From IMG/VR virus record IMGVR_UViG_3300028592_000008, positions 1-64,000 of that record: a stretch of DNA of 64,000 bases; one strand, given 5' to 3'. The notes beneath the pieces were generated by a model. The model was not told where the DNA came from. It searched no databases and was given only the letters and a program-made list of their open reading frames with translations. Below are positions 10,956 to 28,603 of the stretch, one piece after another; the stretch's first letter is position 1; each line of letters starts with the position of its first letter. Position numbers and translations under genes: made by a program. The stretch comes from a virus.

Positions 10956-11147
10956 ATGCTGGTTCTGAGCCGCAAAGAGGGTGAGTCGATCATCATTGGG
11001 GATGGGATCGAGGTGAAGGTCGTCGACATCGACGGCAACAAGGTGCGGATCGGCATCGAGGCGCCGCGGAACGTATCGGTTCACCGCAAGGAGGTTTACG
11101 ACGCGATGAAGCGTGAAGCGAAGGAAGGAGGCAGCCGTGGGGCTTGA
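10956..11147 (+). CDS. csrA: CsrA/RsmA-family RNA-binding translational regulator
   Basis: 63 residues matching CsrA along its length: [12 protein letters not shown] start with Leu4 and Arg6, [20 protein letters not shown] strands, and [17 protein letters not shown] with Arg44, the RNA-contacting residue. CsrA dimers bind GGA motifs near ribosome-binding sites and alter translation or mRNA stability. A good AAAGGA precedes the ATG. The gene overlaps the next one by 11 bases. A phage copy could reprogramme host mRNAs or control phage genes; many leaders here contain GGA. Confidence 0.95.
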
Positions 11148-12027
11148 AACTGGGATTAGCTGGACCGACTACACATGGAACCCATGGCAGGGCTGCACGA
11201 AGATCAGTCCGGCGTGCGCGAATTGCTATATGTTCCCGGGGATGTGGCGATGGGGCAAGGACCCGACAGTTGTCCGCCGCTCGTCTCCACAGACTTTCAA
11301 TCTGCCGCTCAAGCGGAAGTCGGCGAAGAACGGCGGCGGATACGCGATGGAGCCGGGCAAGTGGGTGTTCACCTGCTCGTGGTCCGACTGGTTCCACAAG
11401 GACGCGGACCCTTGGAGGGACGAAGCCTGGGCAATCGTGAGGGCTCGCCCGGACCTGAACTTCCAGATCGTCACGAAGCGGACGGAGCGGATCAAGGACT
11501 GTCTGCCATCCGATTGGGGCGACGGATACCGGAACGTCATCCTGATCGCGACTGTCGAGAATCAGGAGTTCCTCGAAAAGCGGGTTCCGGACCTGTTCTC
11601 CGTCCCGGCGTGGCGTCGCGGGTTGTCGTGCGAGCCGCTGCTGGGGCCGCTCGATTTCCACCGCAGGTGCTTTGCCGACAACTGCCAGGGAGAGTGCGGA
11701 TGGCCTTCTCCGTTCGATCTCCTTGGAGACAACAAAAACGGATCCGGCGCACTGATCGACTGGATCATCACCGGCGGGGAATCCGGAACAGGGGCGCGGC
11801 CATCGAATCCTCAGTGGTTCCGGGACGTCCGGGATCAGTGCTTCTTGGCGGGAGTTCCGTTCCACCACAAGCAAAACGGCGAGTGGGTGTCTGTCAGTGA
11901 GGTCGAGGGACCCGGGGAGCACTTCGCCTTCTCGGATCACAGGGTTGTGCGGCGGGTAGGTGTCGCCGCGGCTGGGAGAACGATCGACGGAAAGGTCTAT
12001 GATGCCTTCCCGTCCATGGGAGCATAG
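11137..12027 (+). CDS. Phage Gp37/Gp68 (DUF5131) family protein
   Basis: 296 residues. The start has the family signature [14 protein letters not shown] followed by three cysteines, C20-x6-C27-x2-C30, as in other Gp37/Gp68 proteins. Later motifs also fit ([35 protein letters not shown]). The biochemical activity is not established to my knowledge; the three-Cys motif recalls metal or iron-sulfur binding, and members are found next to the TcmP three-Cys-motif partner protein in other genomes, which I do not see here. The GTG at 11137 follows AAGGAGG inside csrA, so the two are coupled. Confidence 0.85.
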
Positions 12028-12031
12028 GGAA

Positions 12032-12559
12032 ATGCGTCGTTTAAGCTGCGCGATTCTCCCGGACCTGTCGCGGGTCCGGGAGGTGACGGTGTTCTACAGG
12101 ATGCGTTGGCGTTTCGTGCGGCCGGGGGACGAAGTCCTGCTGGTCGACCGGATCGCCAATCGATCGGGAGGCGAGGCGAAAGGCCTGTCGGTAGTCCGGG
12201 TCGTTTCGATCCGCGAGACCCGGCTTATCGAGATGACGGCGGCGGCTGACGGCGGCCGGGCGGAGACGGACAGGTGCGGCTTTTGGGGGAAGACCCCGCA
12301 GGAGTTCGTGGACGCGATGTGTGACGCGCACAAGACCGATCCGTGGTACATGATCTCCCGGATCGAGGTGGAGCACGCGGAGCCGCTTCCGGAGCCGAAC
12401 TTCCGCGGGTATCTCCCGATGGACGTTCACCCCGCCCCGGAAGGTCGCGTCGCCAAGGCGATGCGAAACGGGATCGCCGCCATGACGAAGTCTCCCAACG
12501 AGGATGACATCGAACGCTGGGATGACGACGGCGGCCCGGCAGTGGAGACCGAGCAGTGA
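12032..12559 (+). CDS. Hypothetical protein with ASCH/PUA-like N-terminus
   Basis: 175 residues. The region 15-60 (VFYRMRWRFVRPGDEVLLVD followed by RVVSIRETRL) resembles the beta-barrel of ASCH/PUA-type RNA-binding domains. A second part around 85-115 has TPQEFVDAMCDAHKTDPW. The acidic C terminus is probably disordered. Domain assignment is by eye only. Confidence 0.5.
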   Translation: MRRLSCAILPDLSRVREVTVFYRMRWRFVRPGDEVLLVDRIANRSGGEAKGLSVVRVVSIRETRLIEMTAAADGGRAETDRCGFWGKTPQEFVDAMCDAHKTDPWYMISRIEVEHAEPLPEPNFRGYLPMDVHPAPEGRVAKAMRNGIAAMTKSPNEDDIERWDDDGGPAVETEQ

Positions 12560-13059
12560 TCTTGCTGGCAATCGACCCCGGGAGCGCGGAGACCGCCTGG
12601 GTCAAAATCGAGCGTGAGACCGGGCGGATCTGCGGGAAGGAGATCGTCGAAAACGACGCCTTCCGGCTGCAGCTCTGGCGGCGCGAAATCGACGGGTACG
12701 ACCGGATCGCGCTCGAGTATTTCCAGCCGCGCGGGATGCCGACCGCTGCGGAGGAGATGGACACGATCTTCTGGTCCGGCCGCTTCATCGAGGCGGCGGG
12801 CCGGGACTGGGACAAGGTGTTCCGGATGCAGGAGAAAATCTCCATCTGCGGGCACGGCTCGGCGACGGACTCCAACATCTCCACGGCGCTCCGGGATATG
12901 TACGGGGGGCAGAAGGAGGCCAAGGGGCTCAAGGCGAGCCCGGGGCCGCTGTACGGGTTCAAGGACGACCTGTGGGCGGCCCTGGCAATCGGAGTGACGT
13001 GGTTTCGTCGGAACGGGAGCCCGGAGTGGGTTCCGAACCTCGAGGAGATTCGGAAGTGA
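12556..13059 (+). CDS. RuvC-like (RNase H fold) nuclease or resolvase
   Basis: 167 residues. The first strand carries AIDPGS with Asp7, the second acidic residue is Glu54 in IALEYFQP, and KDDLWAALAIG near the C terminus supplies Asp137/Asp138. This order of acidic residues and the DPGS motif match RuvC-type Holliday junction resolvases, which cut branched DNA before packaging. The GTG start overlaps the previous stop. Confidence 0.7.
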   Translation: MILLAIDPGSAETAWVKIERETGRICGKEIVENDAFRLQLWRREIDGYDRIALEYFQPRGMPTAAEEMDTIFWSGRFIEAAGRDWDKVFRMQEKISICGHGSATDSNISTALRDMYGGQKEAKGLKASPGPLYGFKDDLWAALAIGVTWFRRNGSPEWVPNLEEIRK

Positions 13060-13476: not shown

Positions 13477-13695
13477 GTGAAGCAGTTTCAGATCAGCGAG
13501 GAAGACCTGCAGTCCCTCGAGCACATTCTCCCGGCCGTGCTGTGGAAGCTGACCTGCAGGCCAGATGCGGACCCGCAGGATCGCGTCCACTTCCGTCAGG
13601 TCCGGGGCATCCTGACAAACGTGCGATGGGGATACTGGCCCCCGGAGAACGTAGAGATCATTCCGCCAGGGGAGACTGACCATGCTGCTGAGTGA
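13477..13695 (+). CDS. Small hypothetical protein
   Basis: 72 residues (MKQFQISEEDLQSLEHILPA at the start) from GTG. It overlaps the following terminase-like gene by 14 bases. Size and helical start would be compatible with a packaging accessory protein, but nothing proves it. Confidence 0.55.
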   Translation: MKQFQISEEDLQSLEHILPAVLWKLTCRPDADPQDRVHFRQVRGILTNVRWGYWPPENVEIIPPGETDHAAE

Positions 13696-14428
13696 GTTTC
13701 AGGCGTTGCCATTTCAGGACGCCGCACTGAATTGTGGGCAGAAGATCCAGATCATCCGCGGGGGCAATCGGTCCTCGAAGAGCCTGGTCGCTGCCGTGAA
13801 GGTGGCCGCCGCGCTGACCGGGGAGACGGTGAAGCTGTCCAACGGGGCGGGCGTGGCGTACACCCCGGCGAAGCGGGTCTACTGCGCCGGGAAGGACTTC
13901 GAGCACGTCTCGGAGAAAATGGCGGCGCCGCTGTTCGGGTCGGCCATCGGAATCGGGGAGGCCCCGGGACTGATCGCCGCCGACAAGATCGAGATGGTTT
14001 CGTGGTTCAACAAGACGCTTGGCTGGCCGGCGATGGTCCGGCTGAAGAGCGGTGCCGAGGTTGTTTTCGGACAGGGATTCAGCAATCACGGGTTCCGCTT
14101 CGCGATCATCTGGGCAGACGAGAAGGTGCTCAGCGACGGGCGGCTCCTGTCGATGGTTGCGCAGGCCGACGTCTTCATCTGGTCGACCTGGCCGGACTCG
14201 ACGAACGACGAGCTCCGGAGGCTGTGCAAGCTGGCGGCGGAGACCGGCGCGGAGTTCGTCTTCCGGATGCAGGACAACACCACGATCTCCGAAGAGAAGC
14301 GGGCGTCGATCCTGGAGACGTGGGGAGCATTGGGGTCGCAGCATTTGCAGGCCCGGAACCTCGGCGAATTCCCGGCCGATCCGCCGGCCGAAGAGAAAGC
14401 TCTTGACACGGAGAAGCCGGCCCCCTAG
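13682..14428 (+). CDS. Terminase-like ATPase lacking the nuclease domain (TerL paralogue)
   Basis: 248 residues, homologous by eye to the ATPase half of the full TerL at 24023-25774. Shared blocks: IIRGGNRSSKS (residues 24-34) versus LIRGGNRSGKS; AIIWADEKV (141-149) versus IIWVDEKV; FIWSTWPDSTNDELRR (165-180) versus FWWSTWPTSTNTALRS; and WGALGSQHLQARNLGEF versus WQALGAGHVQARNEGEF. It stops where TerL continues into its nuclease domain. The Walker A glycine before Lys33 is Ser32, so ATP use may be altered. GGGGAGACTGACC precedes the ATG. A gene-free, structured stretch follows immediately. It could be an accessory packaging ATPase, a decoy subunit or a decaying duplicate. Confidence 0.8.
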   Translation: MLLSEFQALPFQDAALNCGQKIQIIRGGNRSSKSLVAAVKVAAALTGETVKLSNGAGVAYTPAKRVYCAGKDFEHVSEKMAAPLFGSAIGIGEAPGLIAADKIEMVSWFNKTLGWPAMVRLKSGAEVVFGQGFSNHGFRFAIIWADEKVLSDGRLLSMVAQADVFIWSTWPDSTNDELRRLCKLAAETGAEFVFRMQDNTTISEEKRASILETWGALGSQHLQARNLGEFPADPPAEEKALDTEKPAP

Positions 14429-14429
14429 T

Positions 14430-15020
14430 GTTCCGCCGGTGACGCCTTCCTGTCCTCAACCGGGAAGTCGAAAATTTGATTTTGCATTTCGTAGGCTTCG
14501 GCCTGCGGAAATAAGCCCGTGTGGTTAGGCGAGTTGAGGCGCCTTCCACGCGGGCTATTTTCGTGGACTGAGGCGAATGAACGAGCCAAAGCTCTCATAG
14601 CGCCCATTTGCAGTTCTGGTTAAGCACGAACCCCTGGGTGCGACCGGAGCCAAGCATATGGGCACCTTAACGCCCAAGGTATGTCGGGGACGTGAACGCC
14701 GGGAAAGGGTTATTTGCTGCCCGTGTCGATTGCAGGCGAAGGTCGCCGCGAAGCACGGGGTAAGGCGTAATTCCCCGGAGACATGATGTGGCGATGGTAG
14801 CCTAAACCTCGCTGGGCAATATCACCTTCCACCTTGTGTGGACACCGCATTAAGCGGAGCAACCGTCGTGAGGAATCAGGCTGAGTTCGCAGCGACGTTA
14901 AACAAATGCGGGGAGTAGCCCCACAAGCCATCACGCGCCGGGACCAAACCCTTAGCGCTCAAGCCGGGACCGATGGACGCTGTTCTTTTGTTGGACGAAC
15001 ACTGGACTCTTTGAGGATTA
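14430..15020 (+). ncRNA. Candidate large structured noncoding RNA
   Basis: About 590 bases with no usable reading frame, visibly less GC-rich than the flanks, but full of perfect helices. Examples: a 10-base stem capped by a UUCG tetraloop (14487-14510); an 11-base stem 14514-14524/14546-14556 enclosing AGGCG/CGCCT; CCTCAAC (14454-14460) pairing with GTTGAGG (14533-14539) in that hairpin's loop, a pseudoknot; GCCCAT/ATGGGC (14602/14658) crossing GTTAAG/CTTAAC (14619/14666); CCCGTG/CACGGG (14720/14754) around GGCGA/TCGCC; CGTCG/CGACG (14864/14893); and GGGG/CCCC (14910/14919). I see no tmRNA, RNase P, group I or group II hallmarks. Large phage RNAs such as GOLLD or ROOL are the nearest concept, but no match is claimed. 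Confidence 0.6.
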
Positions 15021-15024
15021 TGAC

Positions 15025-15456
15025 ATGCCACGTTACGAGCTTATCAATCCGAGCGACTACTACACCTTCGAAGCCCGGGACATCCTGATCGCCGGCGCGG
15101 TGACGATGTTCCTGAGTTCCAACTTCGGGGCGGTGCAGATCCACCCGGAGGGGGACGAGCGGACGCCGATGCTGTTCGGCTGGGAGGAGTGGTTCAAGTC
15201 GAAGGGGGTCGACCTGCATGATCCGAAGTGGACCCGGGAGAACCTGCAGGCGATCGCGGAGGCTTTCGAGTCGTTCGTCATCGGGGACCGGGCGGAGTAC
15301 ATGGCTGGGCTCGAGGCGACCCTGGAGGCAGACCGGCCGGCGTTCATCGAGAAGTGGAACAACGAGAAGCGGAGCAGCGTGAACGACATCGGGAAGGCCG
15401 CGCGGAGCTACGCGACTCAGTGTCGGAAGATGCTTGAGGCTGTGGCCGCGGGCTGA
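15025..15456 (+). CDS. Hypothetical protein
   Basis: 143 residues, soluble. The N-terminal part reads ELINPSDYYTFEARDILIAG; the C-terminal half is helical with EKWNNEKRSSVNDIGKAARS. The first gene after the structured RNA candidate; GAGGA lies before the ATG. No family recognised. Confidence 0.65.
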   Translation: MPRYELINPSDYYTFEARDILIAGAVTMFLSSNFGAVQIHPEGDERTPMLFGWEEWFKSKGVDLHDPKWTRENLQAIAEAFESFVIGDRAEYMAGLEATLEADRPAFIEKWNNEKRSSVNDIGKAARSYATQCRKMLEAVAAG

Positions 15457-15491
15457 GTCGCCCGGGATCGAACACTGGACGCTGGGAGTCG

Positions 15492-17817: not shown

Positions 17818-19155
17818 ATGAAAACTCTGACCTACCATTGTTCCCGGGAACCGAGGCCGCAGGACGTCGAGACTGCCTACCTCGAGGCTCGAGGCCTGGC
17901 GGGTCCGGCGAGTTTCTGGGACAGGGCTGGCGGGAAGAAGGGTCCGTTCACCCAGCGGCGCGATGGCGGCCGGCTGATGGCTGATCTTGGGCCCGGCGAC
18001 CATGTCGTCTTTCGGTCGATCGGCTCGGCGTTCGGAAGCCTGGCTGACTGGCGGGACACGGTGCGGCTGATGCTGGTCCGCGGGGCGACGGTCCATTTCA
18101 TCGGCGAGGGGCTGGTCATCTCCCGGGAATCTTCGTGGGTCGTGGGGACCGTGCTCGACGTCTACCTCCGCTTCGTGGCCGAGTTCGCGTCGGCGGACCG
18201 GCGGCGGCCGACGGAACCGTGCTCACAGCGGAAGCGGCGGTGTTCCGGAGGTGAAGTGGAGATTCCGGCCGGGAAGTTCGACGAGCTGTTGCGCCAGCAG
18301 AAGTGGGGCGACTGCCGGTTCCCGGCGACGACCGGGACACGGCACTCATACGCCATGCTGGAGGAGCCGCCGCGTTTCCCGGGAAACGATTTCCGGTACT
18401 GGCGCGAGGTGCGATACCTCCACACGCAGTACCCGTTCATCGAGCGTCCGGAGGGGAAGCGGCTGGTGCTGCGGGCCAAGCCAGGCGACGCGATGTTCGT
18501 CTGCGCCGGAAAGGCCTTCCGTTCTGTCGAAGACATGGTCTCCGCTTCCCGGACGCTTGCCGCCATTGGTGTCTCGGTGACGATCACGGACTTCGGGATC
18601 ACGACGCTGGCCGAGGAGGGGCGCGCCCTGATGAACCTGCTGGCGGTGTACGACATCTTGGCCCGGCGGCGGAAGTCGGAAGAACGCAAAGAACGCGGGC
18701 AGCGGAAGCAGATAACGATGGAGCTCCCGTTCTACCTGAAACGGCGGCCGAACGGGCGGGTCGTCATCAACGAGTTCCGGCTGTGGGGCGTCCTGCAGGT
18801 TCTCAATCGTCGGGAAATGAGGGGGATCGAGCTCGAGGACTGGATGGAAGAGCAGGAGGCCGAGCACTTCGGGGACCGGAAGCTGCCCCGCCACACGATC
18901 AACCGGCGGGCCAGGTATCGCTGGCACCCGGATCACGGCACGCTGCTTCGGCACCCGGGGCGCGGATACTGCCGGTCGCGATTCTGGCACAAGGCCCGGA
19001 TCAACGACATCCGTCGCGCGGGGCTGGAGCCGGTGAAGACCATGCTCGCCCAATACGGAATTCGTTTCCCGGGAAACGATATGCCCCGGCCACCGAAGGC
19101 CAGCCGGCGGAAGCGGGGAGTCACGAGCGGAACTGATTCCAGTCAGCCAGAGTGA
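17818..19155 (+). CDS. Protein with two resolvase-like domains, probably not catalytic
   Basis: 445 residues. Two stretches follow the order of a serine-recombinase N-terminal domain: residues 1-125, with LGPGDHVVFRSIGSAFGSLADWRDTVRLML..GATVHFIGEG (split), and 195-290, with AKPGDAMFVCAGKAFRSVEDMVSASRTL..IGVSVTITDFG. In real resolvases this block is pGD-hydrophobic-DRxxRS-dl; here the catalytic arginines are not evident. Residues 290-400 are basic with HTINRRARYRWHPDH, possibly DNA-binding. Two perfect palindromes are embedded as RFPGN (186-190 and 416-420) and one shortened copy lies at 17840. The fold assignment is an inference. Confidence 0.5.
   Translation: MKTLTYHCSREPRPQDVETAYLEARGLAGPASFWDRAGGKKGPFTQRRDGGRLMADLGPGDHVVFRSIGSAFGSLADWRDTVRLMLVRGATVHFIGEGLVISRESSWVVGTVLDVYLRFVAEFASADRRRPTEPCSQRKRRCSGGEVEIPAGKFDELLRQQKWGDCRFPATTGTRHSYAMLEEPPRFPGNDFRYWREVRYLHTQYPFIERPEGKRLVLRAKPGDAMFVCAGKAFRSVEDMVSASRTLAAIGVSVTITDFGITTLAEEGRALMNLLAVYDILARRRKSEERKERGQRKQITMELPFYLKRRPNGRVVINEFRLWGVLQVLNRREMRGIELEDWMEEQEAEHFGDRKLPRHTINRRARYRWHPDHGTLLRHPGRGYCRSRFWHKARINDIRRAGLEPVKTMLAQYGIRFPGNDMPRPPKASRRKRGVTSGTDSSQPE
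17840..17851. promoter_or_regulatory. Shortened palindrome variant
   Basis: GTTCCCGGGAAC, the dispersed palindrome lacking one T-A pair per arm, 22 bases into the resolvase-like gene. It may be a weak site or chance. Confidence 0.35.
18374..18387. promoter_or_regulatory. ParB/Noc-type palindrome, site 4
   Basis: Perfect CGTTTCCCGGGAAACG (18373-18388) inside the resolvase-like gene, read as R-F-P-G-N. Confidence 0.8.
19064..19077. promoter_or_regulatory. ParB/Noc-type palindrome, site 5
   Basis: Perfect 16-base form at 19063-19078, near the 3' end of the resolvase-like gene, again read as R-F-P-G-N, 690 bases from site 4. This is the closest pair of perfect sites after sites 1 and 2. Confidence 0.8.
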
Positions 19156-20797: not shown

Positions 20798-21955
20798 ATG
20801 GCGAACTTGGTGCCGCAGACGACTGACGAAGCGACGGAAGTCGCGCGGGCAACAGCTCCGACCTTCATCAAGGGGTTTGCGGACCTCACGATGCGGAAGC
20901 GGATTTGGATGGCCCTCCTGCGGAAGTACGGTCGGGTCCTGTTCAACCAGGGCGGTCACACGACCGTCTGGGGTGTCCGGGTCCGGGAGGCGACGCCGCA
21001 CACGATCGGGGCGAACCCGACGTTCGACTTCAACTCCATCAACCGGAACGAGCAGCTCTCGCTCGACTGGCGTGGCTACGGGCACGAAGGCGTGCTGTGG
21101 GTGAAGGACAAGCTGATGAACGGCCAGGCTGGCGCGTCGCAGCTTTGGAACATGCTGAACGACCGCACGGAAACGCTCGCGGAAGAGTTCGCCCGCATGT
21201 TCAACCGCGAGATTTACGTTGACGGCGAAGCGGCCGGCAACGGCGAGCGGTTCCACGGTCGCGGGACGTTCCTGAACTACAAGGCCGGGGTGACCTCGGA
21301 CGACCGCGTCGCTCTTCCGGACGGCAGTTACGCCGGCCTGTCGATCGAGCTCGGCGGCCTCGGCGGCTCCTGCACCAATGCGATCTCGGCCGGCGAGAAG
21401 CCGAACACCGACCTCGGGGCCGACTGGCCGGAAGGTCAGGCGACGGCGGACTTCGACGCGACGAGCCCGCTGATCCTGAACATCTCGTCGGATCGCTGGA
21501 CGCCGGACGGCGGCACGACCTGGCGGGACAACAACGAGGCGATTCTCTCGTACACCAACGAGATCCAGTCGGCTCGCGGCGCCCGGGAATCCCGGACGGC
21601 AGGTGAGGCTCCGATCCTCAACCTGATGACGGCGAAGATGAAGAACGAGTTCGAGATGGGACAGCGCGGGCGGTTCCAGATCAACCTGCAGATGCAGGAG
21701 ATGATCGACCTCGGATTCCCGGACACGTACCGCTACGAAGGTGCGGTGATCGCGGCGGACTACGAATGCCCGCACGGCGAAATGCACCAGCTTTCCCCGG
21801 GCACGATGGAGTACGCGGCGCTGACCGAGGACTACTGGACCTTCGAAGGTCCGACGTACCTCCCCGGGCAGATGAAGTGGATCTGGCTGCTGTACACCTA
21901 CGGCAACTTCCGCTTCCAGCCCAAGTGTGAGGCGTTCGGCAAGAGCATCGCCTGA
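20798..21955 (+). CDS. Major capsid protein (putative)
   Basis: 385 residues. Size, position after the scaffold and before terminase and portal, and an N-terminal helix followed by beta-rich sequence fit a HK97-fold capsid protein. Features include FADLTMRKRIWMALLRKYG, a loop with WRGYGHEGVLWVKDK and a C-terminal WLLYTYGNFRFQPKCEAFG. GAGGAGT before the ATG is strong, as expected for an abundant product. The assignment rests on context rather than a recognised motif. Confidence 0.7.
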   Translation: MANLVPQTTDEATEVARATAPTFIKGFADLTMRKRIWMALLRKYGRVLFNQGGHTTVWGVRVREATPHTIGANPTFDFNSINRNEQLSLDWRGYGHEGVLWVKDKLMNGQAGASQLWNMLNDRTETLAEEFARMFNREIYVDGEAAGNGERFHGRGTFLNYKAGVTSDDRVALPDGSYAGLSIELGGLGGSCTNAISAGEKPNTDLGADWPEGQATADFDATSPLILNISSDRWTPDGGTTWRDNNEAILSYTNEIQSARGARESRTAGEAPILNLMTAKMKNEFEMGQRGRFQINLQMQEMIDLGFPDTYRYEGAVIAADYECPHGEMHQLSPGTMEYAALTEDYWTFEGPTYLPGQMKWIWLLYTYGNFRFQPKCEAFGKSIA

Positions 21956-23377: not shown

Positions 23378-23391
23378 CATTGGGTGACACC

Positions 23392-24042
23392 ATGCCGCGG
23401 ACGGTCTACGAAACTCCGACGAAGCGATGCCAAGCCTGTCAGCGGATGTTGACGGTTCACTGCTTCAAGCCGGCGACGGCGGTCTACTGTGAGGGCTGCA
23501 CGGAGACCGTACAGCCGATCGCGGTGAAGCTGGCCGAGGAGAAGGTCGGGGCGGTCGCGATCAGCCTGGCGGACTCCCTGCAGCGCACAGTCGACGCCAG
23601 TCAGCCGGACATGGAACAGATCGTCCGGCTGACGATGAGGGCCATGGGCGGCCCGGATGGCATCGTGGGCATCGTCTCCCGGCAGATCGCGGACCTCGAG
23701 GGGCGGCTGATCAACGGGAAGATCGTCAGCTACGAAGAGGCGGTCCGACTGAACGAGGGAAAGACGAAAGACCGGAAGACGTTGCTCGCGTACCTGAAGC
23801 TGTTCACGGCGATGGTCGCGAAGAACGACGAGGCGAAGGCGGACGAGCGGAAGCGGACCGCCGGGCTGAATGTCGTCGAGATGGGGAACCGCCTGCTCGA
23901 CTTCTGCTGGAAGCAGATCAACGGGGACAAGTCGTTCCGCGAGCGGCTGATCCGGCTGCTGGTGTCGAAGTTCCGGGACGACGTCGCCCGGGCGATGAAC
24001 ACGATCGAGACGGAGGCGGTCGGTGGGACAGCTCAACCTTGA
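23392..24042 (+). CDS. Putative terminase small subunit with N-terminal zinc finger
   Basis: 216 residues. A CQACQ...YCEGC pair (about 13-37) forms a zinc-finger-like start; the rest is helical. It overlaps the TerL gene by 20 bases, the usual place for TerS. The classic TerS helix-turn-helix is not obvious, so this is a context call. The ATG at 23392 follows GGGTGACACC; a TTG at 23380 is an alternative. Confidence 0.5.
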   Translation: MPRTVYETPTKRCQACQRMLTVHCFKPATAVYCEGCTETVQPIAVKLAEEKVGAVAISLADSLQRTVDASQPDMEQIVRLTMRAMGGPDGIVGIVSRQIADLEGRLINGKIVSYEEAVRLNEGKTKDRKTLLAYLKLFTAMVAKNDEAKADERKRTAGLNVVEMGNRLLDFCWKQINGDKSFRERLIRLLVSKFRDDVARAMNTIETEAVGGTAQP

Positions 24043-25774
24043 GGAGACGGACTACGTACCGTACTCCGAAGACGACCTGCAGTGGATCGCCCAATGGGCG
24101 GCCGAAGAGTCGGACGCGATCAAGCTCTTCCGGCCGATGCCCCCGGAGTTCATGTCGCAGGAGGACGTGCTCCGCGCGGAGTGTCTGCACAAGCTGATCC
24201 GCGGCGGAAATCGTAGTGGAAAATCCACGATCGCGGCGGTCATGTTCGCCGCGGCGGCCCGGGACATGCCGATCACGACCTGGAGCGGGGAGGAGATCCA
24301 CGTCCGGCGGCCGTGGCAGCGCGGGAAGCCGCTGCTGATGTGGGTCGTGGGCTACGATTGGGACCATATCGGCGACACGATTTACCGGCTCCTGTGCGAG
24401 CCGAATCACTCGCTGAAGATGATCCGGGACCTCGAGACGGGGGTCCTTCGCGCGTTCAAGCCGTGGGACCCGTCCGACGCCGCGCGGGAGGACGAGACCG
24501 AGCCCTGCCCTCCGCTGATCCCCGGGCACGAGATCGAGAGGATCGTCTGGAAGAATGCGGGCGCGCATATCTTCGACCAGATCCGGCTCAGGAACGGCAC
24601 CGTCATTCACGGTCACAGCTCGAAGGAGGCCAAGGCAGGGGACCCGGTCGACATCATCTGGGTCGACGAAAAGGTGGAGTACGAGATCAACGTCGCCGAG
24701 TGGCAGGCGCGTCTCGGGGACAAGCGCGGGCAGTTCTGGTGGAGCACCTGGCCGACCTCCACGAACACCGCGCTGCGGTCCATGTCACGAAAGGCGAAGT
24801 CGGACGACGTCGAGATCCGGGAGGGAAAGCGGAAGCGGAGGACGGTGCAGGAATGGGTTTTCAAGATGTACAAAAACCCGTACATGCCCGCCGAGTCCAA
24901 ACAGGACTTGCTCGAGAACTGGCAGGCCCTCGGCGCCGGGCACGTCCAGGCTCGAAACGAGGGGGAGTTCGTCGACGAGGGGGACCGCGCGTATCCGATG
25001 TTCAACGAGGACACCTGCGCGGCGATCGTGCATGGGGACCTCGAGGACGTGATCTCCCGGATCCTGCGGAAGCGGAATGGGGAGCCGCCGAGCGATTGGG
25101 CCCGGTTCATGATGCTCGACCCCGGGACGACGCGACCGGCCCTGCTCTTCGGGGCGATCCCGCCGCCGGCACTCGGGGACTGGCGAGTCATCTACCAGGA
25201 GATCATCGCCCCGGGGCACGACGCATTCCGGCTGATGAAGCTGGCGGAGCCGTTCTTCCAGAACTACTCGTTTCAGACGTTCGTCATCGACATGCAGGCT
25301 GGCCGGAAGACGGGCGAAGGCCACCGGATCAGCAACGCCGAGAACTACTCGAACGCCATGCGGAAGTACGGAATCCGCTCGGAGAAGACCGGGTTCGGGT
25401 TCGTCCCCGGGTCGCCGGACATCAATGCCCGGCGCGGCATCATCCAGTCGTGGATGCACGTCGGAGCGAGCGGCCTGGCGAAACTGCGGATCGTGAAGGA
25501 GCGGTGCAAGATCCTTGTCCACGAGCTCAGTACGGTCAAAACCAAGGTGACGCAGGCTGGCGCGGAGAAGATCGACGGCCGGGAACACGACGCGACGGAC
25601 ACGCTCGAATACTTCGGCTCGATCGACCCGCAGTGGGAACCTCCTGTTCACGTAGAGCGGCAGGTGCTAAAAAATCCTGCGGAAGTGCTCAGGGAATACC
25701 TTGAGACTCTGCGTCCCTCGGAACGGCCGAAGAGCAGCGGAAGCGTCTTCGGCGCATGCGGAAATGGAAGGTGA
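24023..25774 (+). CDS. terL: Terminase large subunit
   Basis: 583 residues with all expected parts. ATPase: Walker A GGNRSGKST at 61-69, Walker B IIWVDE at 211-216, and a coupling-like STWPTS at 241-246. Nuclease (RNase H fold): Asp366 in MMLDPGTT, Asp423 in FVIDMQAG, and Asp523/Asp526 in EHDATDTLEYFG. It pumps DNA into the prohead and cuts it. The GTG start lies within the TerS-like gene with GGAGGC upstream. A nuclease-less paralogue lies 10 kb upstream. Confidence 0.92.
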   Translation: MGQLNLEETDYVPYSEDDLQWIAQWAAEESDAIKLFRPMPPEFMSQEDVLRAECLHKLIRGGNRSGKSTIAAVMFAAAARDMPITTWSGEEIHVRRPWQRGKPLLMWVVGYDWDHIGDTIYRLLCEPNHSLKMIRDLETGVLRAFKPWDPSDAAREDETEPCPPLIPGHEIERIVWKNAGAHIFDQIRLRNGTVIHGHSSKEAKAGDPVDIIWVDEKVEYEINVAEWQARLGDKRGQFWWSTWPTSTNTALRSMSRKAKSDDVEIREGKRKRRTVQEWVFKMYKNPYMPAESKQDLLENWQALGAGHVQARNEGEFVDEGDRAYPMFNEDTCAAIVHGDLEDVISRILRKRNGEPPSDWARFMMLDPGTTRPALLFGAIPPPALGDWRVIYQEIIAPGHDAFRLMKLAEPFFQNYSFQTFVIDMQAGRKTGEGHRISNAENYSNAMRKYGIRSEKTGFGFVPGSPDINARRGIIQSWMHVGASGLAKLRIVKERCKILVHELSTVKTKVTQAGAEKIDGREHDATDTLEYFGSIDPQWEPPVHVERQVLKNPAEVLREYLETLRPSERPKSSGSVFGACGNGR

Positions 25775-25778
25775 CACT

Positions 25779-26228
25779 GTGGCGAAGAAGGCAGCATCGA
25801 AGGGTCGGGCTCCGGCCGGCGGGAGCAATCGCGAGACTCCGCGGCAGCTCGGCGACGCGCCGATCGTTGACGCGGCGGGGCTCGTGATTCCGACGCCTGG
25901 TTGGCGGGTGAACTACTGGCCGAACGGTCAGGGGATCGGGGCCCCGCTTCCGGCGGACGTGATCTCGGTGACGGGGTCGCAACTCAACCTGAGCGTCCTG
26001 CGGATCAGCGGGGCGGTCCCGGCGGAGAACGTCTACTGCCGGCACGACAAGCGGGTCGTCGACAATCCGAAGGCGGCGAAGACCGGGGTCTGGGACTGGA
26101 TGCAGGGGTACGAGCCGGAGAGACTGTACGGCGACAAGCTGCAGCCGCGCCCGGCCCTGTTGGACGGGAAGAAGGGCGGCGGCGCGCCGAGCGGCGGATC
26201 GACTCCGCCGATCAAGAACGCCGAGTGA
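25779..26228 (+). CDS. Hypothetical virion-block protein
   Basis: 149 residues from a GTG in the context AGGTGACACTGTG. A basic disordered N terminus (AKKAASKGRAPAGGSN) and a Gly/Pro-rich C terminus enclose a small beta-rich domain. Between terminase and portal; a head accessory protein is possible. Confidence 0.55.
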   Translation: MAKKAASKGRAPAGGSNRETPRQLGDAPIVDAAGLVIPTPGWRVNYWPNGQGIGAPLPADVISVTGSQLNLSVLRISGAVPAENVYCRHDKRVVDNPKAAKTGVWDWMQGYEPERLYGDKLQPRPALLDGKKGGGAPSGGSTPPIKNAE

Positions 26229-26257
26229 TTCTGGCGGAGTGATCCGGAGGGGGCGGG

Positions 26258-28603
26258 ATGGACATTTTGCAGAATCGGCAGCCGAACGTGGTGAAGCGGC
26301 TCGCGGCGCTTTGGTCGACAAAGATCAAGGCGGGCGTCGAGGCGCGGAAGACGTTCGACAACATCGCCGACCAGTGCCGCATGTTCATGTACGCCCCCAA
26401 CGGCTTTCTCTGGGACGAGGGGTATCGCCGCCGCTTCAAGATCGAGGCGGAGGTGCCGAAGTTCCAGGTCACCATCAACAAGCTGTTCGAGCTTGTCGCG
26501 ATCGTAGGCCCATACATCTATTGGGATTACGCGGACCGCAAGGTGTCGTCACTGGTCCCGGTGGACATCGTCGAAGGGGCTTTCGGCGAGGGGATGGACC
26601 AGCAGGTCGAGCAACTCCGGATGGAGCAGCAGTTCCAAGCGAACCGCATGGAACAGGCCTGCAAGCTGTTCGAGAAGGTTCTGAATCACACGCAGCGGAG
26701 CCAGCGGAACGGGGGGCTGATTTCGGAAGGCCGGCAGATCGTCCAGGACTTCCTCATGACCGGCTGGGGGATTGCCTGGCCGGAGGTGACGAGCAGTCCC
26801 GGGCTCCCGCGGAAGATCACCGGCTGCTACCGCATGGACCCGAAGGAGATGGTCGTCGATCCGGACTGTTCGGATCCGACCCTTGAGAGCGCGGGCTGGG
26901 TCGGGCGGCGACGGATCACGCCGCACTACCAGCTCGAGCGGATGTTCGGCCGGAAGCCCGGGTCGCTGAAGCAGTACGCCACGGTTCAGGGCACGGACGC
27001 GATGGCGGATCAGGCCTCGCGCAAGGGCCGGAAGTTCAGCCAGTCGTTCGATCACGTCGTCTGGTTCGAGATTTACAGCAAGTGCGGGATCGGGTTCAAC
27101 CTGTCGAATTCGATCCGCGACGAGCGGGGGAAGTTCGAGGAGCCGCTCATGTCGCCGGTTGAGCAGATGCTCGACGACGATGTGCAGGACTTCGCCTACG
27201 TCTGCGTGATCCCCGGGCACGACGTCATCCTCAACCTCGAGAAACCGCTCCCGGAGATGACGAGCGAGGAGGTGCAGGACGCCTTCCGCTGGCCGTTCCA
27301 GAGCTACAAGGCGGACCGCTGGCCGTTCGCGAAGTACGCCTGCTACTCGGATGGCACGGGGCCGTATCCGATCGCCCCGCTGGCCCCAGCGCTCGGCCAC
27401 CTGATCTGCATCTCCGTCCTGACCGCGGCCTACGTCGAGAAGGCGTGGACGAACCGGAAGGACATCATCGCGGTTCTCGACACGTACTACAAAGACTTGA
27501 CCGAGGCGCTCAAGTCGAACAACAGCGAGACGATCGTCAAACTGTCGAAGGAACTCGGGAAGCCGATCAACGAGCTGATCCAGTTCCTCCAGCGCCCGGA
27601 TCAGAATTACGACATCCTCAAGGCGCTCGAGTGGGAGACCCAGAACTTCCGGGAATCCTCGGGGCTGTACGAGGTTCTGTACGCCGCGTCCGCCGGGATC
27701 GAGCGTTCCGCGGAGGGGACGAAGCAGAAGGCCAAGTCCGCGTCGATCCGCCCGGACGATATGTCCGCGCAGTTCGGCCGGTTCATGGGCGAGCTTGCCT
27801 ACCTGGAGCTCCTGCTGATGTGGGAAAAGCTGGACCCGGACGACGTGGTCGACATTCTGGGTGTCGGCGGGGACATGCTCTGGCAGGAGTTCGTGCTCTC
27901 CCTGCAGGAGACCGAGGTCTACCGGATGTGCCGGGTGGAGGTGTCGGCGACGGACATGCGGCGCCCGGACCGGGACAAGGAGCTCGCGGATCTGAAGGAA
28001 GTCATCCCGGTCATCATGCCGATGCTGCAGCTTGCCGCGCAGTCCGGGACGCCGGAGGGGATCGAGCCAATCAACGTGCTGATGCGTCAGTTTGCGAAGG
28101 CACTCAACTGGAAGGAGCCGATCCAGTTCGCTCCGATCCAGCCGCCGGCCCCTCCGCCGGAAGTCGCGGAGCAGCAGACCCGGATGACCGAGGCCGAGAT
28201 CGCGAAGACGGAAGCCGACGCCGCTCTCAAGGGTGCGCAGGCTCAGGCCGCGGGTGCGGACGGCGAGGGCGAGATGGCGATGCGAGAGCAGGAACTCGAG
28301 CACGACCGGATCCGAATGGACATGGAACTCGAGAAGGGTCAGCAGGAGATGGCGCTCGAGGGGGCGAAGGGCGAGCAGCAGATGGCCCTCGATGGAGCCA
28401 AGGCCCGGCAGTCGATGATGCTCGCCGCCGCGCAGGGGCGTCAGCAACTCGACCTGACCAGCGCGAAGGGGGCGCTGGACCTGAAGAGTGCTATCCTGAA
28501 GTCGCAGCTCGCTCTCCGGCAGCAGTCGGAAATGGGCGACGCGAAGGTGGCGACGGCAAAGAAGATGGCCGCCGCCAAGCCGAAGACTTCAACGCAGGGG
28601 TGA
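26258..28603 (+). CDS. Portal protein
   Basis: 781 residues, directly after the terminase genes. The first 560 residues have the mixed alpha/beta layout of large portals (EARKTFDNIADQCRMFMYAP, VDPDCSDPTLESAGWVGRRR). From about 640 there is a long Ala/Glu/Gln coiled-coil tail with repeats of KGQQEMALEGAKGEQQMALDG type, like the crown or barrel extensions of podovirus portals. No motif is diagnostic; size and position make this a firm call. Confidence 0.8.
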   Translation: MDILQNRQPNVVKRLAALWSTKIKAGVEARKTFDNIADQCRMFMYAPNGFLWDEGYRRRFKIEAEVPKFQVTINKLFELVAIVGPYIYWDYADRKVSSLVPVDIVEGAFGEGMDQQVEQLRMEQQFQANRMEQACKLFEKVLNHTQRSQRNGGLISEGRQIVQDFLMTGWGIAWPEVTSSPGLPRKITGCYRMDPKEMVVDPDCSDPTLESAGWVGRRRITPHYQLERMFGRKPGSLKQYATVQGTDAMADQASRKGRKFSQSFDHVVWFEIYSKCGIGFNLSNSIRDERGKFEEPLMSPVEQMLDDDVQDFAYVCVIPGHDVILNLEKPLPEMTSEEVQDAFRWPFQSYKADRWPFAKYACYSDGTGPYPIAPLAPALGHLICISVLTAAYVEKAWTNRKDIIAVLDTYYKDLTEALKSNNSETIVKLSKELGKPINELIQFLQRPDQNYDILKALEWETQNFRESSGLYEVLYAASAGIERSAEGTKQKAKSASIRPDDMSAQFGRFMGELAYLELLLMWEKLDPDDVVDILGVGGDMLWQEFVLSLQETEVYRMCRVEVSATDMRRPDRDKELADLKEVIPVIMPMLQLAAQSGTPEGIEPINVLMRQFAKALNWKEPIQFAPIQPPAPPPEVAEQQTRMTEAEIAKTEADAALKGAQAQAAGADGEGEMAMREQELEHDRIRMDMELEKGQQEMALEGAKGEQQMALDGAKARQSMMLAAAQGRQQLDLTSAKGALDLKSAILKSQLALRQQSEMGDAKVATAKKMAAAKPKTSTQG

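What the first reader, a model, noticed from the sequence alone, without database searches (positions are those of the whole stretch)
13682..15020. Nuclease-less terminase ATPase next to a structured RNA: phi29-like packaging logic?
The 248-residue protein is a clear paralogue of the ATPase half of the TerL at 24023-25774 and ends before the nuclease. It is followed at once by the structured RNA candidate. In phi29 the packaging motor is an ATPase working with an RNA ring (pRNA). Here a full TerL exists as well, so an accessory motor, regulatory subunit or packaging decoy could be involved. Ser replaces the usual Gly before the Walker Lys.
Basis: partly seen in the sequence, partly recalled or inferred. 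Interest (0 to 1): 0.78.

Follow-up and report, generated by a model that had tools for sequence, protein, structure and literature searches.

The report
Nuclease-less terminase copy beside structured RNA
An otherwise unknown phage carries, besides its normal DNA-packaging enzyme, a shortened second copy that has lost its DNA-cutting half and a key motor residue, next to an unrecognised folded RNA; both are real, but nothing shows that they work together like the phi29 packaging motor.

Summary
The 248-aa ORF (13682-14428) is a terminase-large-subunit (TerL) ATPase domain: 30% identity to the TerL at 24023-25774 (E 2e-21), a confident model (pLDDT 88.8) matching solved TerL ATPase domains (Z up to 18.5), and coding composition like the real TerL. 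It stops where the nuclease should start. A profile walk found about 20 new TerL relatives in viral and bacterial contigs; none has a second ATPase or the RNA. Against these, the short copy keeps the ATP-binding residues but lacks an otherwise invariant arginine at the likely trans-arginine-finger position and a conserved 31-residue segment. The following RNA is real: 14447-14696 has folding z -6.7, plus strand only, the strongest signal sampled in the 64 kb; its 3' 220 nt is unstructured. The phi29 reading is not supported: the pRNA model finds phi29's own pRNA but nothing here, phi29's ATPase keeps a vestigial nuclease-fold domain that this protein lacks, and the full TerL sits in the conserved packaging module. 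Best guess: an ATP-binding auxiliary that modulates or poisons TerL rings, beside a separate, new RNA. Function is inferred.

The parts
13682..14428 (+). ATPase-only TerL paralogue, 248 aa; start codon overlaps the preceding ORF by 14 nt, GGGGAG ribosome-binding-like site upstream
   Evidence: BLASTP to own TerL E 2e-21; model pLDDT 88.8; VIA-align Z 18.5 to P74-26 TerL ATPase domain; GC by codon position as in TerL
13760..13783 (+). P-loop GGNRSSKS (residues 27-34), with cis arginine R30 and Lys33; Ser32 replaces Gly
   Evidence: sequence; conserved-site audit
14105..14122 (+). Walker B with catalytic Glu, IIWADE (residues 142-147)
   Evidence: sequence; D146/E147 invariant in all TerL relatives
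14162..14164 (+). Gln161, at the position of the arginine invariant in 17 of 17 close TerLs (Arg230 of own TerL), the inferred trans-arginine finger
   Evidence: spacing compared with D6E E143/R158/N169 (PMC5727402)
14447..14696 (+). structured RNA core: five hairpin arms (the largest 14488-14581, 38 bp) enclosed by a 12-bp helix (14447-14460 with 14683-14696)
   Evidence: z -6.7, entropy 0.17 against 0.98 +/- 0.30, plus strand only; helices with mean pairing probability 0.88-0.99
14699..14778 (+). second RNA hairpin domain
   Evidence: helices of 5, 18 and 9 bp, mean probability 0.81-0.97
14781..15024 (+). 3' part of the non-coding gap, not more structured than chance; leader of the 15025 gene
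   Evidence: z +0.6 for 14781-15000; flat codon-position GC
15025..15456 (+). downstream gene, family phrog_10705, unknown function
   Evidence: E 2.3e-16; relatives in three named phages have no terminase-like gene annotated beside them
12556..13059 (+). RuvC-like Holliday junction resolvase, three genes upstream in the same tightly packed gene run
   Evidence: phrog_1770 E 1.4e-9; phage resolvases 32-36% identity
24023..25774 (+). full-length TerL (ATPase plus nuclease; acidic residues D366, D423, D526)
   Evidence: phrog_2 E 4.7e-9; about 20 relatives; nuclease columns conserved
20798..21955 (+). major capsid protein of the conserved packaging module
   Evidence: phrog_9953; matched upstream of TerL in 11 relatives
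26258..28603 (+). portal protein of the conserved packaging module
   Evidence: phrog_156; matched downstream of TerL in 12 relatives

Best explanation
Shown: 13682-14428 encodes an isolated TerL ATPase domain, a diverged paralogue of the phage's working TerL, with the composition of a normal gene, with the residues to bind ATP but without the nuclease, a conserved segment and the arginine at the likely trans-finger position. A separate, folded, sense-strand RNA of about 330 nt follows it. Inferred: the copy cannot form a working motor by itself, because ring ATPases of this kind need an arginine supplied in trans by the neighbour. It most likely acts as an ATP-binding auxiliary of the real TerL, entering or competing for TerL rings or their TerS/portal contacts, so that it slows, times or titrates packaging. 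The RNA is most likely an independent element co-transcribed with the gene (3'-UTR or leader element, or an excised non-coding RNA); no physical link to the protein is shown.
For: Paralogy and fold. Active gene: codon-position GC and coding score equal to TerL. Retained Q12, R26, G27, G28, R30, K33, D146, E147, W167, P171, N175, E191, N199, R225, G228, against lost R230 and E226 (17/17 in close TerLs), R143 (16/17), R155 (15/17). In D6E TerL the arginine between helix alpha3 and strand beta4 (R158) is indispensable for ATP hydrolysis and acts in trans, and the nuclease-free ATPase domain oligomerises and is about 59 times faster than the whole protein (PMC5727402); an ATPase-only paralogue without this arginine is thus a plausible ring poison or modulator. 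The full TerL lies in the conserved capsid-TerL-portal module and the copy lies outside it. The RNA is real.
Against: No relative with the gene was found, so there is no evolutionary proof that it is kept for a function; its branch is long (2.4 substitutions per site), which also fits relaxed constraint. Calling R230 the trans-finger rests on spacing and alignment; the finger's place varies between terminases (R139 on another strand in P74-26). Interaction with TerL is untested.
Confidence: 0.35

Rival explanations
1. A non-functional duplicate or recombination relic: the ATPase half of a TerL left behind from a duplication or from another phage's terminase cassette, on its way to loss, next to an unrelated RNA.
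For: No relative carries it; long branch and loss of otherwise invariant residues; some phages have a resolvase near TerS-TerL (Xanthomonas phage Rb1), so RuvC-x-x-ATPase could be a relic of such a cassette.
Against: Open frame of 248 codons with codon-position GC identical to the real TerL, clean domain boundary, ATP-site residues kept, ribosome-binding-like site and overlap with the upstream gene; at 30% identity an unconstrained relic should have stops. The genes next to it do not resemble Rb1's HTH, TerS or TerL proteins.
Confidence: 0.25
2. Decoy or anti-defence protein: it mimics TerL so that host sensors of TerL (Avs-type proteins) or satellites that target the terminase bind the dummy instead.
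For: The fold matches the TerL in the Avs3-terminase structure (8dgc, Z 12.5); an inactive copy of the sensed domain is what a decoy would be.
Against: No sensor, host or satellite is known for this virus; the ATP site is still kept; no paper on such decoys was found.
Confidence: 0.12
3. The ATPase works with the upstream RuvC-like resolvase as a two-protein DNA-processing enzyme (ATPase plus RNase-H-fold nuclease on separate chains), clearing branched DNA before packaging.
For: A RuvC-like resolvase is encoded three genes upstream in the same tightly packed run; RuvC is related in fold to TerL nucleases (stated in PMC7672431).
Against: Such resolvases are common in phages without an ATPase-only partner beside them; two ORFs intervene; the trans-arginine is missing.
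Confidence: 0.1
4. phi29-like motor: an ATPase ring working on an RNA ring made of the adjacent RNA.
For: Adjacency of a TerL-type ATPase and a well-defined multibranched RNA.
Against: pRNA model negative with phi29 as working positive control; no C-terminal nucleic-acid-binding domain as in gp16 (PMC7672431); likely trans-arginine lost; a complete TerL with its own module is present.
Confidence: 0.04

Closest known systems
TerL ATPase domain, T4-gp17/Terminase_6N type (T4 gp17, D6E, P74-26, Sf6 solved structures)
   Same: Same fold over residues 1-238 (Z 15-18.5), P-loop with cis arginine, Walker B Asp-Glu, motif C, Q motif, lid segment ending A-R-N-x-G-E-F
   Different: Encoded alone without nuclease, in a genome that also has a full-length TerL; lacks the arginine at the D6E R158 position and a 31-residue segment conserved in its close relatives; Ser in the P-loop
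phi29 packaging ATPase gp16 with pRNA
   Same: A packaging-type ATPase without active nuclease and a structured RNA in one phage
   Different: gp16 keeps a vestigial nuclease-fold domain and is the only motor; pRNA is a 118-position family (RF00044) not found here; this RNA is about 330 nt with a different layout
Ornate large RNAs of phages and bacteria (GOLLD, ROOL, OLE, HEARO)
   Same: Long multibranched non-coding RNA, here in a phage genome
   Different: No match to any Rfam 15 family even with relaxed filters; shorter; known from one genome only
Split TerL genes (ATPase and nuclease on separate genes; known to me from actinobacteriophage annotation, from memory, not tested)
   Same: ATPase-only TerL protein of similar size; two 222-225-aa BFVD models match at E 1.6e-8 and 8.2e-8 (unnamed)
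   Different: There the split pair would replace the whole TerL; here a complete TerL is present as well

Membership tests
TerL ATPase domain family | ASCE/terminase ATPase fold | tested here: met
   pLDDT 88.8 model; P74-26, D6E, Sf6, T4 TerL as top matches
TerL ATPase domain family | P-loop Lys, cis-Arg, Walker B Asp-Glu, motif C | tested here: met
   R30, K33, D146, E147, W167-P171 retained
TerL ATPase domain family (as an active ring motor) | Trans-acting arginine between alpha3 and beta4 | tested here: not met
   R230 invariant 17/17 in close TerLs; Gln161 here and no Arg in that loop; position assigned by spacing to D6E R158, so the function of R230 itself is inferred
Full TerL | C-terminal RNase-H-fold nuclease | tested here: not met
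   ORF ends 18 aa after the ATPase domain; the following DNA is not a decayed nuclease (no collinear tblastx match)
phi29-type packaging motor | pRNA (RF00044) | tested here: not met
   No match in the record or in the RNA region; phi29 control 145 bits
phi29-type packaging motor | gp16-like vestigial nuclease domain after the ATPase | tested here: not met
   Only an 18-aa tail after residue 230, low confidence from 238 on; gp16 architecture from PMC7672431
phi29-type packaging motor | RNA bound to procapsid and required for packaging | not testable with these tools
   needs biochemistry
Known RNA families (Rfam 15) | covariance-model match | tested here: not met
   best chance-level match 14.9 bits against a cut-off of 142
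CsrB-type CsrA-sponge RNA (the phage encodes CsrA) | excess of GGA in hairpin loops | tested here: not met
   17 GGA in 596 nt against a window mean of 18.8; most are at least partly paired

The most novel reading that the evidence does not exclude
A heteromeric packaging motor: a finger-less, nuclease-less TerL paralogue enters the TerL ring as a special regulatory subunit, assembled on or timed by the adjacent large RNA, which would be a second, independent use of RNA in a viral DNA-packaging machine.
Probability: 0.04. Interest if true: 0.9.

Novelty: new variant of a known kind. Interest (0 to 1): 0.45.

Why it matters
TerL rings are thought to be homomeric. A naturally duplicated ATPase domain that should bind ATP but seems unable to serve its neighbour would be a ready-made tool to ask how subunits in a packaging ring depend on each other, and a possible natural brake on packaging. 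The RNA is an unusually ordered single-sequence fold in a phage intergenic gap and belongs to no Rfam family.

Tried and rejected
Homologues by single-protein scans of viral contigs with the ATPase, TerL, portal and capsid proteins: none, because the exact 8-residue seeds are insensitive; a P-loop DNA pattern plus tblastn then found true TerL relatives, and a profile scan gave 21 viral and 2 bacterial-contig loci. Named phages: no tblastn match to the ATPase, TerL, portal or capsid. RNA by blastn in phages and plasmids, by one exact pattern in viral contigs, and by a covariance model of its long hairpin over 370 kb of window and relatives: only itself. RNA as a decayed nuclease half: rejected. 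RNA as an intron or other Rfam family: no support. RNA as a CsrA sponge: rejected. The first structure model, from a 2-row alignment, was too poor (pLDDT 42.5) and was not used. Tree: grouping with own TerL neither supported nor rejected (AU p 0.35), so recent duplication against older or foreign origin is undecided. Neighbouring ORFs as a vestigial TerS/TerL cassette like that of Xanthomonas phage Rb1: no similarity. The 15025 gene's relatives in three phages show no RNA or ATPase link. Literature on second or split TerL genes and on TerL decoys gave nothing usable.

Full report
The window is 64 kb of a 72,427-base IMG/VR virus record from a tailed phage with no close relative in the phage, viral-contig or bacterial-genome collections searched. 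Its packaging module runs capsid protein (20798-21955), a 220-aa ORF immediately upstream of TerL that may be TerS by position (23380-24042, no Pfam match), TerL (24023-25774), portal (26258-28603).

The ATPase. The ORF at 13682-14428 is 30% identical to TerL residues 57-316 (E 2e-21). It looks like a working gene: GC by codon position 0.61/0.46/0.87 against 0.62/0.44/0.87 for TerL, coding score per codon 0.370 against 0.360 (TerL was among the training genes of that score). No relative was found by direct scans. A degenerate DNA pattern for the TerL P-loop gave 28 contigs, of which five carry clear relatives; a profile from three TerLs then gave 21 viral loci and 2 bacterial-contig loci with 22-42% identity. 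In these the capsid-TerL-portal order is kept. Searching each whole record with the ATPase-domain profile found the TerL in all 19 records and no second ATPase (one record gave two pieces of one TerL); the largest viral records are 58.7, 45.5 and 43.5 kb, plus two whole bacterial bins. The copy is therefore peculiar to this phage so far, although the records may be incomplete.

With an alignment of 20 sequences the ATPase model reaches pLDDT 88.8 and matches the TerL ATPase domains of P74-26 (Z 18.5, 204 residues, rmsd 3.2), D6E, Sf6 and T4. The alignment consists of TerLs, so the model is guided by them. An audit of conserved sites shows what was kept and lost. Kept: Q12, R26-G28, the cis arginine R30, K33, D146, E147, W167, P171, N175, E191, N199, R225, G228. 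Lost: the P-loop glycine (Ser32), R122 (Ala82), a 31-residue segment holding T139, R143, D152 and R155, and E226-W227-x-x-R230, of which E226 and R230 are invariant in 17 of 17. R230 lies 14 residues after the catalytic Glu and 11-12 before motif C. In D6E TerL the trans-arginine finger R158 lies 15 after E143 and 11 before N169, in the loop used by the HerA/FtsK superfamily between alpha3 and beta4, and is indispensable for hydrolysis (PMC5727402). In the copy, Gln161 occupies this place, between helix 155-160 and strand 162-169 of the model. The assignment is by spacing; P74-26 uses an arginine on another strand. Ser32 alone is weak evidence of inactivity, because a TerL-like frame of another lineage has it too (L035). 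The tree places the copy on a long branch (2.4 substitutions per site); grouping it with its own TerL is not rejected (AU p 0.35).

The RNA. The 596-nt gap 14429-15024 has no coding signature. In 798 window-strands of 200 nt sampled over the 64 kb, the three lowest z-scores are at 14401-14800 on the plus strand (-4.3, -5.3, -4.3). The 341-nt stretch 14440-14780 has z -5.3; its core 14447-14696 has z -6.7, ensemble diversity 9.2 against 58 +/- 19 and positional entropy 0.17 against 0.98 +/- 0.30, with 0 of 200 shuffles as ordered, and nothing similar on the minus strand. The core boundaries were chosen after seeing the fold, so the z of the fixed windows is the fairer figure. The predicted shape is a 12-bp closing helix around five hairpin arms, one of 38 bp, followed by a second hairpin domain. 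The last 220 nt are not structured. This is a single-sequence prediction; without homologues there is no covariation test.

The phi29 idea. Rfam's pRNA model finds phi29's pRNA (145 bits) but nothing here. phi29 gp16 is not simply nuclease-less: it keeps a vestigial nuclease fold whose nucleic-acid binding was assayed (PMC7672431); this protein has no such domain. The real TerL is complete and in its usual place. I therefore reject membership and give little weight to the claim that it works like phi29.

Mechanism. Shown: a diverged ATPase-only TerL copy with an intact set of ATP-site residues and no arginine at the likely finger position; a real RNA next to it. Inferred: the copy is a poor motor alone but could occupy a TerL ring or its partners, as receiver but not donor of the finger, and so slow or time packaging. 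A relic, a decoy for TerL-sensing immunity, or a partner of the RuvC-like resolvase remain possible. The RNA is probably independent: the two are adjacent in one genome and nothing more is known.

Noticed in passing
window 10956-11147 +: The phage encodes a CsrA homologue (PF02599, E 3.5e-27) directly after a tRNA-Cys; the structured RNA is not enriched in GGA and is not an obvious CsrA sponge.
   Followed up: partly
window 14996-15007 and 15469-15480 +: The 12-mer CGAACACTGGAC stands exactly twice in the window, each time 11-17 nt before the start codon of consecutive genes (15025 and 15492).
   Followed up: no
window 26201-26400: Strong folding on both strands (z about -4.0 and -3.8) at the junction before the portal gene; possibly a terminator or a DNA hairpin.
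   Followed up: no
window 17818-19155 +: Serine-recombinase-like protein (PF00239) upstream of the capsid module; distant relatives lie upstream of the module in L066 and L067.
   Followed up: partly
window 11113-12027 +: DUF5131 protein, E 5.6e-64, in the same gene run.
   Followed up: no
L045-L067: A group of about 20 uncharacterised phages sharing a divergent TerL, capsid and portal, including contigs binned with Porticoccaceae and Flavobacteriaceae MAGs.
   Followed up: partly
L005 280-5052 (G000 64280-69052): A 1590-aa ORF near the end of the record, possibly a large virion protein.
   Followed up: no
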